Assembly (NCBI RefSeq): GCF_016862915.1
Contig: NZ_BONW01000013.1
Coordinates: forward strand, 620,001 to 684,000
Source: Plantactinospora endophytica
Lineage (GTDB): Bacteria > Actinomycetota > Actinomycetes > Mycobacteriales > Micromonosporaceae
Direction of reading: 5' to 3'
DNA: 64,000 nucleotides
A program made the translations under genes and the position numbers. Positions 840 through 5,464 of this stretch are shown piece after piece (positions within the stretch are counted from its first letter, which is position 1; every line of letters starts with the position of its first letter). A model generated the notes under the pieces. It did not search any database. It was not told where the DNA came from and saw nothing but the letters and a program-made list of their open reading frames with translations.

Positions 840-1053
840 TCCCGGGAGAGGTTCGAGGGCTGCTGAAGGCGAGCCGATCCTAGCCCGTCGATCACCGGTG
901 GCCCGCACGGAGGGCGGCGGGAAAAGGCTTCCCTAACCCGTCTGTCGCCGGACGGTCGGTTGTGGTCGCCGGACGGCGGAGCGCGGTTGGCGGAAATCCG
1001 TGTGTCGGTGGGGGTTGAGTCGGCGAGGCGGGCGCGGTAACTTCTTCTCTAGG

Positions 1054-1066
1054 TGAGTAAGACTCA
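1054..1066. promoter_or_regulatory. Inverted repeat upstream of NUDIX cluster
   Basis: TGAGT-AAG-ACTCA is a perfect inverted repeat with 5-bp arms, 27 bp before the start of the NUDIX gene. A second half-site, TTGAGTC at 1015-1021, is the reverse complement of GACTCAA at 1061-1067. The position suits an operator for the cluster. NUDIX proteins with an NrtR-like C-terminus often regulate their own operons, so self-regulation is a reasonable inference. Confidence 0.4.
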
Positions 1067-1092
1067 ATCTGAGAATAACGAGAGGGTGGCCG

Positions 1093-1845
1093 ATGCGCGC
1101 CGAGTCCACGTTCCTGGCGGCGTACGACCCGGCCGGATATCCGCCGGTCGCGGTCACCGTCGACATCGTGGTGCTGACCATCCGGGACGGTGCGCTGCAC
1201 GTGCTGCTGGTCGAGCGGGCCGAACATCCGTACCGGGGGCGGTCGGCCCTGCCCGGCGGGTTCGTCCGGGACGAGACGCTGGCCGAGGCGGCCCGCCGGG
1301 AACTGGCCGAGGAGACCGGGCTGTGCCCGGGCGAGGCCGCCCTGGCCCGGGTCCACCTCGAACAGTTGCGCACCTACGGCGATCCCGGACGTGACCCGAG
1401 GATGCGGGTGATGTCCGTGGCCTATCTCGGATTCGCGCCGAGCCTGCCGGACCCCCGGGCCGGCGGCGACGCGGCCACCGCCGGATGGGTGCCCGTCGAC
1501 GAGGCCCGGGAACTCGCCTTCGACCACGACACCGTGCTCGCCGATGGACTCGAACGCGCCCGCGCCAAGCTGGAGTACACCCCGCTGGGCACGGCGTTCC
1601 TCGGGGCGGAGTTCACCATCGGCGAGCTGCGCGCCGTGTACGCCGCCGTCTGGGGCGAGCAACTCCACGCCGGCAACTTCCACCGCAAGGTGCTGTCGGT
1701 GCCCGGCTTCGTGGAGAGCACCGGCGGGACGACCAGCCGGGGCGGCGAACGGGGTGGGCCACGGGCCCGCCTCTACCGTGCGGGCGACGCCGCCCTGCTG
1801 CATCCGGCTCTGCTCCGGCCGACCCGGGAGGAGCAGGTGCGGTGA
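1093..1845 (+). CDS. NUDIX hydrolase with NrtR-like C-terminus
   Basis: The N-terminal half is a NUDIX domain with an intact box at residues 55-77 (G-x5-E-x7-REL-x-EE-x-G), preceded by the VTVDIVVLTI strand usual in ADP-ribose pyrophosphatase/NrtR proteins. Residues about 150-215 (LEYTPLGTAFLGAEFTIGEL, HAGNFHRKVL) match the winged-helix part of NrtR-like regulators, where ADP-ribose-type ligands control DNA binding. The intact box suggests it may still hydrolyse a nucleoside-diphosphate substrate. Start ATG at 1093 has GAGAGG upstream. It is the first gene of the unusual cluster running to 5464, and its TGA overlaps a possible GTG start of the next gene. Whether it is an enzyme, a regulator or both cannot be decided from sequence. 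Confidence 0.85.
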   Translation: MRAESTFLAAYDPAGYPPVAVTVDIVVLTIRDGALHVLLVERAEHPYRGRSALPGGFVRDETLAEAARRELAEETGLCPGEAALARVHLEQLRTYGDPGRDPRMRVMSVAYLGFAPSLPDPRAGGDAATAGWVPVDEARELAFDHDTVLADGLERARAKLEYTPLGTAFLGAEFTIGELRAVYAAVWGEQLHAGNFHRKVLSVPGFVESTGGTTSRGGERGGPRARLYRAGDAALLHPALLRPTREEQVR

Positions 1846-1991
1846 ACCGGGGCGGTGCCGGGGACGGCGGTGCGGACGCGACGGGCGACGACGGCGGTAC
1901 GGGGCCGAGGTGCCGCAACGGCGGCCGGCGGAGGACGAGGCCGGGTGGCCGACGCGGCGCCGGGAGCCGGCCGCGAGAGGGGACCGACACG

Positions 1992-2969
1992 ATGACCTTC
2001 GACGAGGCGGTTGCCCTGGTGCAGCGGGCGCGTACCCCGGCCGAGATCTTCGCCGACGGCGCGACCGCGTACCGCCGGTTGGTCAAGATCCTGCACCCGG
2101 ATGTCGCACCGGCCGGTCGCACCGCGACCGCGACGGCGGCGCTGGCCCGGCTCACCGCGCTCTGGGCCACGACCACGGCGGTGATCCGGACCCGGCGGCA
2201 CCGCTGGTCCGTCGGTGCCGAGATCGCCGTCGGCGACCTGGCCACGCTCCGCGAGGTCACCGACGGACCCCTGTCCGGCCTGCTGAAACTGCCGCGCGAC
2301 CCGGCCGACGCCGATCTGGTACGGGCCGAGATCGACGCGCTCGACCGGCTGGCGAGCCACGGCGAACACCGGTTCCGCGACTACGCCCCACGACTGCTGG
2401 ACACCGTCGTGCACGACGATCCGGCGACCGGGACGCGTCGCACCGGACCGGTGCTGGAACGCCTCGACGGGTTCGTCAGCCTCGCCGAGGTGGCCCGGCG
2501 GTACCCCGACGGAGTCGACCCGCGCGACGCCGCCTGGATGTGGCGCCGTCTGCTCGTCGGGCTCGGCTGGGCGCACCGGGCCGGCCTCGTGCACGGCGCG
2601 GTACTCCCCGAGCACGTGCTGATCCACCCCGCCCAACACGGCCTCGCCCTGGTCGACTGGTGCTACGCGGTCCGGCCCGGCCAGCGGATAGCCGCGCTCG
2701 TCGCCCGCTACCGCGACACCTACCCGCCGGAGGTGCCCGGCCGCCGACCCGCCACCCCGGCCACCGACCTGTACGCCGCCGCCGAGCTGATGGCCCGACT
2801 GATCGGCCCCCGGCTGCCGCCGGCCCTGCGCCGGTTCGCGGACGGCTGCCGCCTGGACCGGCCCTCGATGCGCCCCGACGACGCCTGGCGACTGCTCGCC
2901 GAACTCGACGACCTGCTGCACGACCTCTACGGCCCCCGCCGGTTCCGACCGTTCGTCCTGCCCACCTGA
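1992..2969 (+). CDS. J-domain-like/pseudokinase fusion protein
   Basis: Residues 1-60 look like a J domain: YRRLVKILHPDVAP carries the HPD tripeptide (35-37) that in DnaJ-type proteins stimulates Hsp70. Residues about 85-315 have a protein-kinase-like layout: candidate ATP-binding Lys99 in LLKLPRD, a catalytic-loop equivalent at 200-211 (VHGAVLPEHVLI) and a DFG equivalent DWC at 222-224. HRD has become HGA, so the catalytic Asp is missing, and the loop Asn is His; it is probably a pseudokinase or an atypical enzyme. ATG 1992 has GAGAGGGGA upstream. An in-frame GTG at 1842 overlapping the NUDIX stop would add 50 low-complexity Gly/Arg-rich residues. It lies between the NUDIX and vWA genes, probably in one operon. 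Confidence 0.7.
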   Translation: MTFDEAVALVQRARTPAEIFADGATAYRRLVKILHPDVAPAGRTATATAALARLTALWATTTAVIRTRRHRWSVGAEIAVGDLATLREVTDGPLSGLLKLPRDPADADLVRAEIDALDRLASHGEHRFRDYAPRLLDTVVHDDPATGTRRTGPVLERLDGFVSLAEVARRYPDGVDPRDAAWMWRRLLVGLGWAHRAGLVHGAVLPEHVLIHPAQHGLALVDWCYAVRPGQRIAALVARYRDTYPPEVPGRRPATPATDLYAAAELMARLIGPRLPPALRRFADGCRLDRPSMRPDDAWRLLAELDDLLHDLYGPRRFRPFVLPT

Positions 2970-3061
2970 CCCCGGCCCCCGCCGGTTCCGGCCGCTCGTC
3001 CCTGCCGGCCTGACCACCCGACCCCCACTCGATCTCGACCGTTCGTCATCCCGGCCTGACC
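2939..3061 (+). repeat. Degenerate tandem repeat copying the gene 3' end
   Basis: Three degenerate copies (2939-2971, 2982-3015, 3029-3061) of the last codons of the J-kinase gene, each ending CCTGACC and therefore carrying its TGA stop. The first copy is the real gene end; the other two lie in the 120-bp gap before the vWA gene. Confidence 0.7.
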
Positions 3062-3089
3062 GCTCAGGCCCGACCGAAGGGAAAGCATC

Positions 3090-4052
3090 ATGGGCAGTGG
3101 ACGTTGGTCGACCGACGTGTACTCGGCCGCCGCGAGCTACCGGGCGGCCCGCGGGGCGAGCCCGTTCGCGTACAACGACAGCGGCGCCCGTACCGCGCAC
3201 CCCGACCTCAGCCCGTACAAGGTGACCGCCCGGGAGAGCCGGGACAGCGCCGAACACCCGCACACGACCCCGATCGCCGTACTCTTCGACGTCACCGGCT
3301 CGATGTACGACGTGCCCCGGGTACTCCAGACGAAGCTGCCGCAACTGCTCGGCCTGCTGCTGCGCCAAGGCTACGCCACGGATCCGCAGATCCTGTTCGG
3401 TGCGGTCGGCGACGCCACCTGCGACCGGGTGCCGTTGCAGATCGGCCAGTTCGAGTCGGACAACCGGATGGACGACCAACTGGCCAACATCGTCCTCGAA
3501 GGGGGCGGCGGCGGCCAGCAGACCGAGTCGTACGAACTGGCGATGTACTTCATGGCCCGGCACACCGTGCTGGACAGCGTCCGCAAGCGCGGCCGTACCG
3601 GCTATCTCTTCCTGATCGGCGACGAGCTGCCGTACGACCGGGTCAAGCCGGCGGAGGTGCGGCGGGTGATCGGGGACCAGCTCACCGAGCCGATCGCCGT
3701 CGACGAGATCGTCCGGGAGCTGCGGCGCAGTTTCGAGGTCTACTACATCCTGCCCGGCGGTTCGAGTTACGCCGGCAACTCGCGCACCCTGACCGCCTGG
3801 CGGAAGCTGCTCGGCCAGAACGTGCTGGAACTCGACGACCTGGACGCGGTCTGCGAGACCATCGCCCTCACCGTCGGGCTGGGCGAGCGCGCCGTCGACC
3901 TCGACGCCGGCCTGCGGGACCTCGACGACCTCGGCTCGACGGCCGGCGACAGCGTCGGCCGGGCGCTGGCGGCGATCCGGCCCGACCCGGTCGGCAGCTC
4001 GGTGGCGCTGACCGGCCTCGACCGGGGCACCGGCGGGAACCTCCGGCTGTGA
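3090..4052 (+). CDS. vWA-domain protein
   Basis: A cytosolic 320-aa protein, with no signal peptide or membrane segment, carrying a von Willebrand factor A-like fold. Strand 1 and the MIDAS motif are VLFDVTGSM (Asp67-x-Thr69-x-Ser71, the DxTGS form), followed by strands LFGAVGDAT and YLFLIGDELP, and a Gly-rich stretch LEGGGGGQQTES. The fold normally binds a divalent metal and a partner protein. Start ATG has GAAGGGAAAG upstream. Its TGA overlaps the GTG of the adenylosuccinate-synthetase-like gene (GTGA), so the two are almost certainly translationally coupled. With the upstream kinase fold the arrangement resembles vWA/kinase pairs of stress or conflict modules such as TerY-type systems; the function here is unknown. 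Confidence 0.75.
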   Translation: MGSGRWSTDVYSAAASYRAARGASPFAYNDSGARTAHPDLSPYKVTARESRDSAEHPHTTPIAVLFDVTGSMYDVPRVLQTKLPQLLGLLLRQGYATDPQILFGAVGDATCDRVPLQIGQFESDNRMDDQLANIVLEGGGGGQQTESYELAMYFMARHTVLDSVRKRGRTGYLFLIGDELPYDRVKPAEVRRVIGDQLTEPIAVDEIVRELRRSFEVYYILPGGSSYAGNSRTLTAWRKLLGQNVLELDDLDAVCETIALTVGLGERAVDLDAGLRDLDDLGSTAGDSVGRALAAIRPDPVGSSVALTGLDRGTGGNLRL

Positions 4053-5464
4053 AACACACGGTCGTCGTGGACCTCGGCTACGGGGACGCGGGCAAGGGGA
4101 CCACAGTGGAGTGGCTCTGCACCCGGGCGCCGGTCACCGCCGTGATCCGGTTCAACGGGGGCGCGCAGGCGGCACACAACGTGCTGACGCCGGACGGGCG
4201 GCACCACACCTTCGCCCAGTTCGGCTCGGGCACGCTGCGCGGCGTACCCACCCACCTGTCGCGGTTCGTCGCCGTCGACCCGCTCGCCCTGGCCGCCGAG
4301 GCGACGCAGTTGGCCCGCCTGGGGGTGCCGGACCCGTTCGGGCTGCTGACGGTCGACGGCGACGCGCTGCTCACGACACCGTGGCACCGGGCCGCGAACC
4401 AGCTCCGCGAACTGCGGCGCGGTGCCGACCGGCACGGTTCGTGCGGGGTCGGCGTCGGCGAGACCATGCGGTACGCCGAGCGCCACCCCGACGCCCCGCG
4501 CGTCGCCGACGTGCGTGATCCGGTACGCCTGCGTCACCGGCTCACCAGCCTGCGTGACCGCCTCACCGACGAACTCGGTCCGCTCGACGCCCAGCCCCCC
4601 GATGCCGCACCGGGCAACGTCCCGTCCCTCGACGCTGCGCCGGCCACCGTCCCGCGCCCCGCCCCGGCACCGCTCGACGCGCCGGGCTTCGAGGTGCCGT
4701 CGGTGGACGACGTGGTGGCGGCGTTCCGGGCGTTCGGCGAGGCGGTCGCGGTGGTGGACGGCGCCGCCGCCCGGCGCCGCCTGCTGCGGGCCGGACCGTG
4801 CGTGTTCGAGGGGGCGCAGGGCGTGCTGCTGGACGAGTGGCGTGGCTGGCACCCGTACACGACGTGGTCGACGACGACCTTCGACAACGCGGCGACCCTG
4901 CTGGCCGAGGCGGACGAGTCGGCGCTGCGGCTCGGTGTGGTGCGGACGTACACCACCCGGCACGGCGCCGGGCCGTTCGTCACCGAGGATCCAGCGCTGC
5001 GCCTGCCGGAGCCGCACAACGGGACAGGTCGCTGGCAGGGCCCGTTCCGGGTCGGCCACTTCGACGCGGTCGCGCACCGGTACGCCGTCGGCGTCTGCGG
5101 CGGCGTCGACGCGCTGGCCGTCACGCACGTCGACGCGCCGGAGCGGGAACCGGCGCTGCGGGTCTGCACCGGTTACGAGGTGGACCGTGCCCCGGTGTTC
5201 CGGCTGGTCCCCGGCCCGGCGCGGGACCTCGCCCGGCAGGCGGAGCTGACCGCGCTGCTGTACCGGGCCCGGCCGGCGGTGCTGTTCCGGCCGGACGACT
5301 GGCCCACCACGATCGGCGGCCTGCTCGACGTACCGGTGCTGATGACCTCGCACGGCCCACGGGTCACCGACAAGCGTCCCGGTCCGGCGGCGGCCGGGTG
5401 CCGTACCGGGTCGGGCGCCGGTCGTCCCGGCCGGGCGGCCCGGTGCGATCTCAGAGTTCCGTGA
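4049..5464 (+). CDS. Divergent adenylosuccinate synthetase paralogue
   Basis: A PurA-family protein (GTP-dependent ligation of aspartate to IMP in the classical enzyme). Recognisable blocks: LGYGDAGKG (Asp13 at the catalytic base, but the usual GDEGKG has become GDAGKG), RFNGGAQAAH with His43 at the catalytic His, SCGVGVGE for the IMP loop, FEGAQGVLLD, TRHGAGPF, and GTGRWQGPFRVGHFDAVA for the Arg-rich nucleotide/aspartate loop. The C-terminus keeps only a weak GTP-site remnant (SHGPRVTDKR). A Pro/Ala-rich insert lies at about 180-212. GTG at 4049 gives 471 aa and overlaps the vWA stop. It is too divergent, and in the wrong setting, to be the housekeeping purA. It may act on another purine nucleotide, as phage PurZ does, or make a signal molecule. 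Its 3' end overlaps the convergent yaaA by 14 bp. Confidence 0.8.
   Translation: MKHTVVVDLGYGDAGKGTTVEWLCTRAPVTAVIRFNGGAQAAHNVLTPDGRHHTFAQFGSGTLRGVPTHLSRFVAVDPLALAAEATQLARLGVPDPFGLLTVDGDALLTTPWHRAANQLRELRRGADRHGSCGVGVGETMRYAERHPDAPRVADVRDPVRLRHRLTSLRDRLTDELGPLDAQPPDAAPGNVPSLDAAPATVPRPAPAPLDAPGFEVPSVDDVVAAFRAFGEAVAVVDGAAARRRLLRAGPCVFEGAQGVLLDEWRGWHPYTTWSTTTFDNAATLLAEADESALRLGVVRTYTTRHGAGPFVTEDPALRLPEPHNGTGRWQGPFRVGHFDAVAHRYAVGVCGGVDALAVTHVDAPEREPALRVCTGYEVDRAPVFRLVPGPARDLARQAELTALLYRARPAVLFRPDDWPTTIGGLLDVPVLMTSHGPRVTDKRPGPAAAGCRTGSGAGRPGRAARCDLRVP

What the first reader, a model, noticed from the sequence alone, without database searches (positions are those of the whole stretch)
1093..5464. 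Undescribed four-gene NUDIX / J-pseudokinase / vWA / PurA-like module
Four genes run in one direction with overlaps or short gaps: NUDIX with NrtR-like tail, J-domain plus kinase fold, vWA and an adenylosuccinate-synthetase paralogue coupled to it by GTGA. Each family is known, but I know no described system combining them. One reading: the PurA-like enzyme makes an unusual purine nucleotide or conjugate, the NUDIX protein senses or removes it, and the vWA and kinase-fold proteins form a chaperone-linked scaffold. Ter-type systems with predicted nucleoside-like products are the nearest parallel. This is a candidate for a stress or phage-defence system.
Basis: partly seen in the sequence, partly recalled or inferred. 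Interest (0 to 1): 0.82.

Follow-up and report, generated by a model that had tools for sequence, protein, structure and literature searches.

The report
Unexplained vWA and PurA-like gene module
A four-gene bacterial operon with its own dedicated control site turns out to be shared by many actinomycete bacteria, some plasmids and large viruses of bacteria; its core enzyme descends from a standard purine-making enzyme but has lost the usual substrate-binding parts, so it probably makes something new.

Summary
Sought through the vWA protein, the four genes stand side by side in 67 of 81 loci from six actinomycete families. A tandem operator precedes the NUDIX gene in 76 of 79 loci; in 250 family genomes, 86 of 88 exact operator sites lie upstream of this operon. 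Of 80 viral loci kept from 323, 79 have vWA plus PurA-like and 50 a J/kinase hit. Plasmids of Actinomycetota and Pseudomonadota carry relatives.

The PurA-like protein fails the curated PurA and PurZ cut-offs. It keeps the catalytic Asp, Lys, His and Gln but replaces, always in bacteria and mostly in viruses, residues recalled to hold IMP phosphate and aspartate. The kinase-fold protein is a J-domain pseudokinase.

Best reading: an autoregulated GTP-driven ligase system with new substrates, possibly NAD/ADP-ribose linked. The chemistry is inferred, not shown. A defence role is possible but the neighbourhood does not support it. Ten searches of an open-licence library found no description of the combination.

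The parts
1039..1079 (.). tandem palindromic operator (two CTCWNNNNGAG units, 16-bp register, TTCTC...GAGAA arms) just upstream of the NUDIX gene
   Evidence: same motif with up to 2 mismatches upstream of the NUDIX gene in 76 of 79 loci, 2 of 1580 shuffled upstream regions, 4 hits in 1.14 Mb elsewhere in the same loci. In the own genome it is the only site at up to 1 mismatch and matches without any; the backward control pattern gave 1 and 2 hits there, so one-mismatch hits are at chance level
1093..1845 (+). NrtR-like regulator: NUDIX domain with a Nudix box plus winged helix; likely autorepressor (inferred)
   Evidence: Pfam NUDIX E 8.3e-21 and NrtR_WHD E 4.2e-11; best NCBIfam hit is the ADPR-responsive repressor model, 113.8 bits, under its cut-off of 400; Nudix box largely conserved over 79 loci
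1992..2969 (+). JK: J domain (HPD at residues 35-37) joined to a protein-kinase fold with the catalytic Asp replaced (HGA); alternative start GTG 1842
   Evidence: AlphaFold model pLDDT 94.7; PknB Z 23.6, rmsd 2.3, 226 aligned; HPD and HGA conservation; J profile hits J domains in the PDB; GTGA start
3090..4052 (+). vWA protein with intact MIDAS (D67-x-T69-x-S71, D178)
   Evidence: AlphaFold model pLDDT 83.1; integrin beta I-like domains Z 15.5, rmsd 2.9, 188 aligned; D67 and S71 in 174 of 174 rows, T69 in 173 of 174, D178 in 173 of 173 with a letter; PHROG 2971 of unknown function E 5.5e-74
4049..5464 (+). PUR: PurA-like ligase paralogue, start GTG coupled to the vWA stop by GTGA
   Evidence: PF00709 E 4.5e-55; fails the purA and PurZ cut-offs; residue table

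Best explanation
An autoregulated enzyme system whose core is a steady pair: a PurA-fold ligase (PUR) and a MIDAS-bearing vWA protein. The NrtR-like NUDIX protein sits on a dedicated tandem operator and keeps the operon off until it binds a nucleotide ligand, probably ADP-ribose or a relative (inferred from the NrtR family). PUR then uses GTP to phosphorylate the 6-oxo (lactam) group of a hypoxanthine-type ring and replaces it with an amine, as PurA does, but on a substrate other than IMP and with an amine other than aspartate; an NAD/ADP-ribose-linked purine is the likeliest substrate. The vWA protein holds the complex or its client through Mg2+, and the J domain of the pseudokinase JK brings DnaK to assemble, load or dismantle it. 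Shown here: the operon, its conservation, the operator, the residue changes, the J-domain pseudokinase, the vWA fold, the phage and plasmid versions. Inferred: repression and ligand, complex formation, the reaction and its substrates, recruitment of DnaK.
For: PUR keeps D13, K16, G17, H41 and Q224 in every row with a letter (75-77 bacterial, 6 plasmid, 82-84 viral) and T239 and D333 in nearly all, while N38 is Gln (100/100/95%), T129 is Cys or Val in most, R143 is not kept, R303 is Gly (100/100/87%) and R305 is hydrophobic. PUR is beside vWA in 79 of 80 viral and 6 of 7 plasmid loci. Overlapping stop and start codons, median -4, for NUDIX-JK (71 loci) and vWA-PUR (77 loci). Dedicated operator. 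HPD kept (His 69 of 69 bacterial, 47 of 48 viral rows) while the catalytic Asp is Ala in 73 of 73 bacterial rows. NUDIX links: NUDIX-regulator profile hit in the same locus in 6 of 7 plasmid loci, a PUR fused to a NUDIX domain in L053, separate NUDIX-type genes next to or near PUR in seven loci of Streptomyces and Actinacidiphila (two Pfam-checked). NAD-related genes near the module in some phages: NAMPT in 5, NADAR in 3, NadM-type in 2 of 93 loci, including the order NrtR-NAMPT-small-vWA-PUR-JK in L182.
Against: No experiment and no ligand-bound structure; the roles of the PurA residues are recalled. GTP use is itself inferred: the Lys of the guanine motif (K331) is His or Cys in most rows, and G416 and P417 are less kept in viruses (84% and 65%). 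The NAD link is thin: no control was run, L182 and L184 share the same gene order, two of four NadM hits are only the NUDIX part of the NrtR-type genes, and NadV is common in large phages (22% of medium and 33% of jumbo phages, PMC9503650 passage). JK is absent in 7 bacterial loci and has no hit in 30 of 80 viral loci; the NUDIX profile hits only 3 of 80 viral loci, one of them the NUDIX part of a NadM-type protein. The Rhodococcus regulator's winged helix is under Pfam's cut-off (16 of 27 bits). The fold match of the vWA to integrins says nothing about function.
Confidence: 0.37

Rival explanations
1. PUR modifies a macromolecule (a protein side chain, or inosine in RNA or DNA) that the vWA protein presents, with JK and DnaK unfolding or releasing the client. 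The vWA is then the substrate-recognition subunit.
For: vWA is the most conserved of three families aligned: mean column identity 69% against 51% for PUR and 37% for JK, and many near-invariant residues lie outside the MIDAS. Residues recalled to hold the IMP 5'-phosphate are replaced, as expected for a larger substrate. An R2K ATP-grasp gene lies just downstream of PUR in viral locus L189, and its homologue cluster c15 lies next to or near PUR in L193, L200 and L212; Thg1-like hits in 4 viral loci, two of them alike.
Against: No conserved client gene in the operon. The neighbour links come from a few loci without a control.
Confidence: 0.27
2. It is an anti-phage or phage-phage conflict system: the ligase makes a toxic or signalling nucleotide when the repressor is relieved.
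For: It occurs on phages and plasmids, is patchy (152 of 250 family genomes; 1 of 7 in the genus) and can be lost as a block with the regulator left behind: G472 keeps operator and NUDIX with only a PUR remnant, G510 keeps operator and NUDIX with fragments of JK and PUR. The kinase-fold part hits the PADLOC models MkoA (E 3.6e-9) and PD-T4-6 (E 1.1e-5).
Against: Flanks look like housekeeping genes and are largely shared within Micromonospora, Streptosporangiaceae and Actinomadura; no PADLOC family hit more than 2 of 127 flanking proteins (no control); vWA and PUR have no PADLOC hit at E up to 1 and NUDIX only E 0.04; the vWA tree follows bacterial families (11 label changes, 8 the least possible).
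Confidence: 0.2
3. PUR is a GTP-driven switch, not a ligase: vWA, PUR and JK form a chaperone machine in which PUR plays the part that AAA+ MoxR plays in MoxR-vWA pairs.
For: Steady vWA pairing and a J domain; MoxR-vWA chaperone pairs are described in jumbo phages (PMC7824862, passages read).
Against: Residues recalled as catalytic for the ligase (D13, H41, Q224) are invariant, which a pure switch would not need.
Confidence: 0.1
4. An ordinary purA isozyme with unrelated neighbours.
For: PF00709 membership.
Against: Scores 143.7 against a cut-off of 402 and 98.5 against 395.6 where the genome's own purA scores 634.6 and 549.7; aspartate-loop arginines absent in bacterial rows; operon conserved across families.
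Confidence: 0.02

Closest known systems
Adenylosuccinate synthetase PurA (PF00709, TIGR00184)
   Same: fold family, GDxGKG motif, catalytic Asp, His and Gln, the Asp of the guanine motif
   Different: residues recalled for IMP phosphate (N38, T129, R143) and aspartate (R303, R305) replaced; TRHG for TRVG; a Gln-Gly loop; far below the equivalog cut-offs; paired with vWA
PurZ (aminoadenylosuccinate synthetase of Z-genome phages, NF038379)
   Same: phage-borne PurA paralogue; PHROG 1211, the family PUR hits, bears the label 2-aminooxy adenylosuccinate synthetase
   Different: PurZ controls (CJY, MeganNoll) score 396 and 365 on the PurZ model, keep a TTVT-x-K-x-RR loop, have Ser for D13 and no vWA match within 3 kb; four PUR proteins tested score 27 to 56 bits and PUR keeps D13
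NrtR family of NUDIX-related repressors
   Same: NUDIX plus NrtR winged helix; palindromic operator upstream of its own gene
   Different: operator CTCANNNNGAG in tandem, not GTTTTCGA-N7-TCGAAAAC of mycobacterial NrtR (PMC6800001, passage); the bacterial operon holds no NAD synthesis gene
ARG-centred ADP-ribose counter-defence systems with NUDIX-HTH regulator and vWA chaperone (PMC9503650, section 3.8)
   Same: NUDIX-HTH regulator plus vWA protein
   Different: no ADP-ribosylglycohydrolase or phosphatase as a conserved partner here; a PurA-like protein and a J-pseudokinase are not mentioned in that section
MoxR-vWA chaperone pairs of jumbo phages (PMC7824862)
   Same: vWA plus nucleotide-using partner in large phages
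   Different: the partner is a PurA-fold protein, not an AAA+ ATPase

Membership tests
PurA (adenylosuccinate synthetase) | passes curated equivalog cut-offs | tested here: not met
   143.7 of 402 (NF002223) and 98.5 of 395.6 (TIGR00184); own canonical purA 634.6 and 549.7
PurA (adenylosuccinate synthetase) | aspartate-loop arginines R303 and R305 (roles recalled) | tested here: not met
   R303 is Gly in 100% bacterial, 100% plasmid, 87% viral rows; R305 is Phe, Leu or Ile in most
PurA (adenylosuccinate synthetase) | catalytic Asp13, Lys16, His41, Gln224 (roles recalled) | tested here: met
   100% of rows with a letter in all three groups
PurZ | passes NF038379 at 300 bits | tested here: not met
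   27.4 bits; controls 396.2 and 365.4
NrtR family regulator | NUDIX domain fused to NrtR winged helix | tested here: met
   both over Pfam cut-offs in the window
NrtR family regulator | ADP-ribose-responsive binding to its operator | not testable with these tools
   a conserved operator exists; binding and ligand need EMSA
J-domain protein | HPD between helices II and III | tested here: met
   HPD at 35-37 between helices 24-34 and 44-59; His kept 69 of 69, 6 of 7, 47 of 48; profile hits J domains; the single protein is under Pfam's DnaJ cut-off
active protein kinase | catalytic-loop Asp | tested here: not met
   Ala in 73 of 73 bacterial rows, Ala or Gly in 7 of 7 plasmid rows; Asp in 4 of 45 viral rows
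vWA domain with MIDAS | DxTxS and a distal Asp in a vWA fold | tested here: met
   fold Z 15.5; D67 and S71 in all 174 rows, T69 in 173, D178 in all 173 with a letter
ARG-centred ADPr system | ADP-ribosylglycohydrolase gene as operon partner | tested here: not met
   no fifth gene family occurs in more than 22 of 81 loci; none among the window flanks scanned
Ter system | TerD/TerC/TerB genes in the neighbourhood | not tested
   no Ter profile was run
known anti-phage defence system | match to a PADLOC 2023 system | tested here: not met
   no PADLOC hit at E up to 1 for vWA and PUR, E 0.04 for NUDIX, kinase-type hits only for JK

The most novel reading that the evidence does not exclude
A PurA-fold ligase that changed both of its substrates became the steady partner of a vWA protein and spread as a phage- and plasmid-borne system that makes an undescribed purine-derived product (a signal, a modified nucleotide or a macromolecular adduct), sensed in cells by an NrtR-type NUDIX repressor and often serviced by a J-domain pseudokinase.
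Probability: 0.4. Interest if true: 0.9.

Novelty: categorically new. Interest (0 to 1): 0.8.

Why it matters
A vWA family found in 323 viral contigs and 207 phage records, paired with a PurA-like enzyme in 79 of the 80 viral loci examined, and found in six actinomycete families, has no described function that I could find. Its enzyme is annotated in phages as adenylosuccinate synthetase, which its residues argue against. If the enzyme makes a new purine derivative, it would add a chemistry next to PurZ and the NAD/ADP-ribose conflicts. The mycobacteriophage version (Sebata and its relatives, recorded on the laboratory host M. smegmatis) makes the question directly testable.

Tried and rejected
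Ordinary purA: rejected. PurZ: rejected with two positive controls. Defence island: a PADLOC scan of 127 of 176 flanking proteins, drawn from 22 hand-picked loci and limited to 80-700 residues, gave only scattered hits; no matched control set was run. A single-protein search in the phylum found 2 of 396 genomes and a profile search in the class 41 of 394; the two are not directly comparable. The vWA profile found no relative with a solved structure by sequence (two hits near E 0.6). The VIA-align rows for JK cover only the kinase part, so the J domain was tested by profile instead. A regulon beyond the operon was looked for with the exact operator in 250 family genomes and not found; the pattern came from these same upstream regions, so only the absence elsewhere is informative. 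Literature: ten searches found no description of the combination; the library holds open-licence papers only, so a description elsewhere is not excluded. Papers: PMC9503650 (passages and all of section 3.8), PMC7824862, PMC9476963, PMC12839542 and PMC6800001 (passages); all others as search listings only; PMC2330246 is not held. Loci were gathered through the vWA protein, so co-occurrence counts are conditional on vWA; PUR without vWA was not searched for in bacteria. The vWA tree is a FastTree with long-branch warnings. My first gene caller for viral loci missed genes in GC-rich contigs; the counts used are from the six-frame search. In the first canonical purA extraction I took the wrong strand and repeated it. 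On re-checking I lowered the count of complete side-by-side operons to 67 (L035 has a gene between NUDIX and JK), lowered NadM-type neighbours from 4 to 2, and lowered the best explanation from 0.40 to 0.37 because the NAD link is weaker.
Full report
Observation. The window (G000:C13:620001-684000, a 9.68-Mb genome) carries four + strand genes at 1093-5464 as described: a NUDIX protein with an NrtR winged helix, a J/kinase-like protein, a vWA-like protein and a PurA-like protein. vWA and PurA-like overlap by GTGA, and the J/kinase frame has a GTG at 1842 that overlaps the NUDIX stop in the same way. A separate full-length purA lies on contig C17.

One operon across families. A scan of species genomes (genome contigs) with the vWA protein kept 80 named loci of 147 relatives. 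With the window that makes 81 loci; the 80 fall in Micromonosporaceae (40), Streptomycetaceae (13), Streptosporangiaceae (12), Thermomonosporaceae (12), Frankiaceae (2) and Glycomycetaceae (1). The order NUDIX-JK-vWA-PUR on one strand recurs throughout. All four stand side by side in 67 of 81. The other 14 are: JK absent in 7 where the NUDIX gene directly precedes vWA (L051, L059, L063, L076, L081, L092, L105), a decayed locus (L066), two contig ends after vWA (L088, L101), one PUR found only in pieces by tblastn (L111), one locus with a gene between NUDIX and JK (L035), one with two genes between JK and vWA (L104), one cut before the NUDIX gene (L057). Median gaps are -4, 13 and -4 bases (71, 73 and 77 loci). 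No other gene family occurs in more than 22 loci; flanks change between families and are largely shared within Micromonospora, Streptosporangiaceae and Actinomadura. The vWA tree (FastTree, with long-branch warnings) needs 11 label changes for 9 groups, the least possible being 8, so within bacteria it looks mostly inherited. It is found in 41 of 394 genomes of the class (profile), 152 of 250 of the family, 1 of 7 of the genus and, with the single protein, 2 of 396 of the phylum.

Loss leaves the regulator. In G472, of the window's own genus and with flanking genes that look the same, the NUDIX gene (93% identical) and its operator remain, JK and vWA are gone, and a PUR remnant is left. In G510 operator and NUDIX gene are followed by an N-terminal piece of JK and a C-terminal piece of PUR. 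The effector part is thus dispensable, and in these two cases it was lost as a block.

Dedicated operator. Upstream of the NUDIX gene lies a tandem palindrome, consensus A.GTT.TTCTCAgAtcGAGat.taCTCA...TGAGAA.gAC, in 76 of 79 loci with up to 2 mismatches, against 2 of 1580 shuffled upstream regions and 4 hits in 1.14 Mb elsewhere in the same loci. In 250 family genomes an exact form gave 88 sites in 88 genomes, with no hit of the backward control; 86 are 0.8-4.9 kb upstream of the vWA gene and the other two are the decayed loci above. In the own genome the window site is the only one at up to 1 mismatch, where the backward control gave 1 and 2 hits. The pattern was derived from these upstream regions, so the informative part is the absence elsewhere. 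It differs from the mycobacterial NrtR site (PMC6800001, passage). The reading as an autorepressor is inference from the NrtR family.

Phages and plasmids. tblastn with the vWA protein hits 207 phage records, 188 of them Mycobacterium phages (listed ones at 39-47% identity; the two examined are Bixzunavirus), and 21 plasmids. Phage Sebata has gp260 annotated serine/threonine kinase, vWA gp261, a small gene, and gp263 annotated PurA-like adenylosuccinate synthetase. Rhodococcus and Tsukamurella plasmids have JK-vWA-PUR followed by a NUDIX-regulator relative; Agrobacterium and Acetobacter plasmids have JK-vWA-PUR with such a gene divergent upstream. Of 7 plasmid loci, PUR is found in 6, JK in 7 and the NUDIX profile in 6. 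In IMG/VR, 323 contigs encode a vWA relative and 80 were kept. PUR is on the same strand in 79 of 80, starting between 7 bases before and 2.75 kb after the end of the vWA match, within 300 bases in 59 of them counted from -20; the locus without it has only 3.3 kb left downstream. JK is hit in 50, the NUDIX profile in 3, one of which is the NUDIX part of a NadM-type protein. The tree separates viral from cellular copies with 5 changes.

The PurA-like enzyme. Over 75-77 bacterial, 6 plasmid and 82-84 viral rows the residues aligned to E. coli D13, K16, G17, H41, E221 and Q224 are invariant and T239 and D333 almost so. N38 is Gln, T129 Cys or Val in most, R143 not kept, R303 Gly (87% in viruses), R305 hydrophobic, and the TRVG motif is TRHG throughout. 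Against a simple reading, the guanine-motif Lys K331 is His or Cys in most rows and G416 and P417 are less kept in viruses. The roles of these residues are recalled, not tested. PurZ phage controls keep the aspartate-type loop, lack D13, pass the PurZ model and have no vWA match within 3 kb; PUR fails the purA and PurZ cut-offs, while the genome's own purA passes two purA models. I infer a GTP-using ligase with two new substrates; D13 suggests a hypoxanthine-type ring.

JK. The model is confident (pLDDT 94.7) and its kinase part matches PknB (Z 23.6, rmsd 2.3, 226 residues). The N-terminus has J-domain topology with HPD at residues 35-37, and a profile of 23 relatives hits J domains in the PDB (best E 5.9e-7). 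HPD is nearly invariant while the catalytic Asp is replaced in 73 of 73 bacterial, 7 of 7 plasmid and all but 4 of 45 viral rows. So the J domain is kept and phosphotransfer probably is not: a Hsp70-recruiting pseudokinase, by inference.

vWA. No Pfam family; fold of integrin I-like domains (Z 15.5, rmsd 2.9, 188 residues; model pLDDT 83.1). The MIDAS is intact over 174 rows, with further near-invariant residues such as R48-E49, Q117, Q120-F121-E122 and E146. Mycobacteriophage Cactojaque carries an intein-like insert just before the distal MIDAS strand.

NAD link. NUDIX-regulator relatives in 6 of 7 plasmid loci; a PUR-NUDIX fusion in L053 and separate NUDIX-type genes near PUR in seven Streptomyces and Actinacidiphila loci (Pfam-checked in two). 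In phages: NAMPT in 5, NADAR in 3, NadM-type in 2 of 93 loci (two further NadM hits are only NUDIX parts), including NrtR-NAMPT-small-vWA-PUR-JK in L182. No control was run, and NadV is frequent in large phages (PMC9503650), so this is suggestive only.

Defence. PADLOC has no hit for vWA and PUR, E 0.04 for NUDIX, and kinase-type hits for JK. Of 127 flanking proteins (of 176 listed) no PADLOC family matched more than 2. Mobility and block loss fit a conflict role; housekeeping-like flanks and inheritance within families do not call for one.

Verdict. A real, widespread and, as far as ten searches of an open-licence library show, undescribed system. Its anatomy is well supported; its chemistry is a reasoned guess at about 0.37.

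Noticed in passing
L053:8080-10023: In Streptomyces sp. NRRL B-24484 the PurA-like protein reads straight into a NUDIX hydrolase with a zinc-ribbon-like lead as one 648-residue frame; a homologous NUDIX-type gene stands next to or near PUR in L055, L068, L071, L081, L085, L092 and L097.
   Followed up: partly
L164:6001-7782: In Mycobacterium phage Cactojaque the vWA gene carries an intein-like insert of about 250 residues just before the conserved IFIGDE strand; Hint and intein matches are under Pfam's cut-offs. Other Mycobacterium phages show a vWA match in two pieces, some with HNH labels.
   Followed up: partly
L267:4398-5069 (G000:C17:165373-166056): A second NrtR-like NUDIX protein, 62-65% identical to the window's, is present in all 7 genomes of the genus searched; in G000 and G452 it lies about 1.4-1.5 kb upstream of genes that by eye look like a branched-chain 2-oxoacid dehydrogenase operon. 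Similar-looking genes flank the four-gene module in Streptosporangiaceae.
   Followed up: partly
L160:6122-6772, L161:6098-6748: Vibrio phages Va1 and pv27 carry a NADAR gene upstream of vWA-PUR (Pfam E 9.7e-49 in Va1; homologue in pv27).
   Followed up: partly
L160, L161, L162, L228: A methionine-rich protein of about 225-263 residues precedes vWA-PUR in Vibrio and Rhizobium phages and one IMG/VR contig; the three scanned have no Pfam match.
   Followed up: no
L148:1675-1869 (G603): A second operator and a NUDIX gene fragment lie about 3 kb upstream of the intact operon, as if part of it had been duplicated.
   Followed up: no
L066: Actinoplanes siamensis keeps NUDIX and vWA with only a short JK-like remnant and no PUR found.
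   Followed up: no
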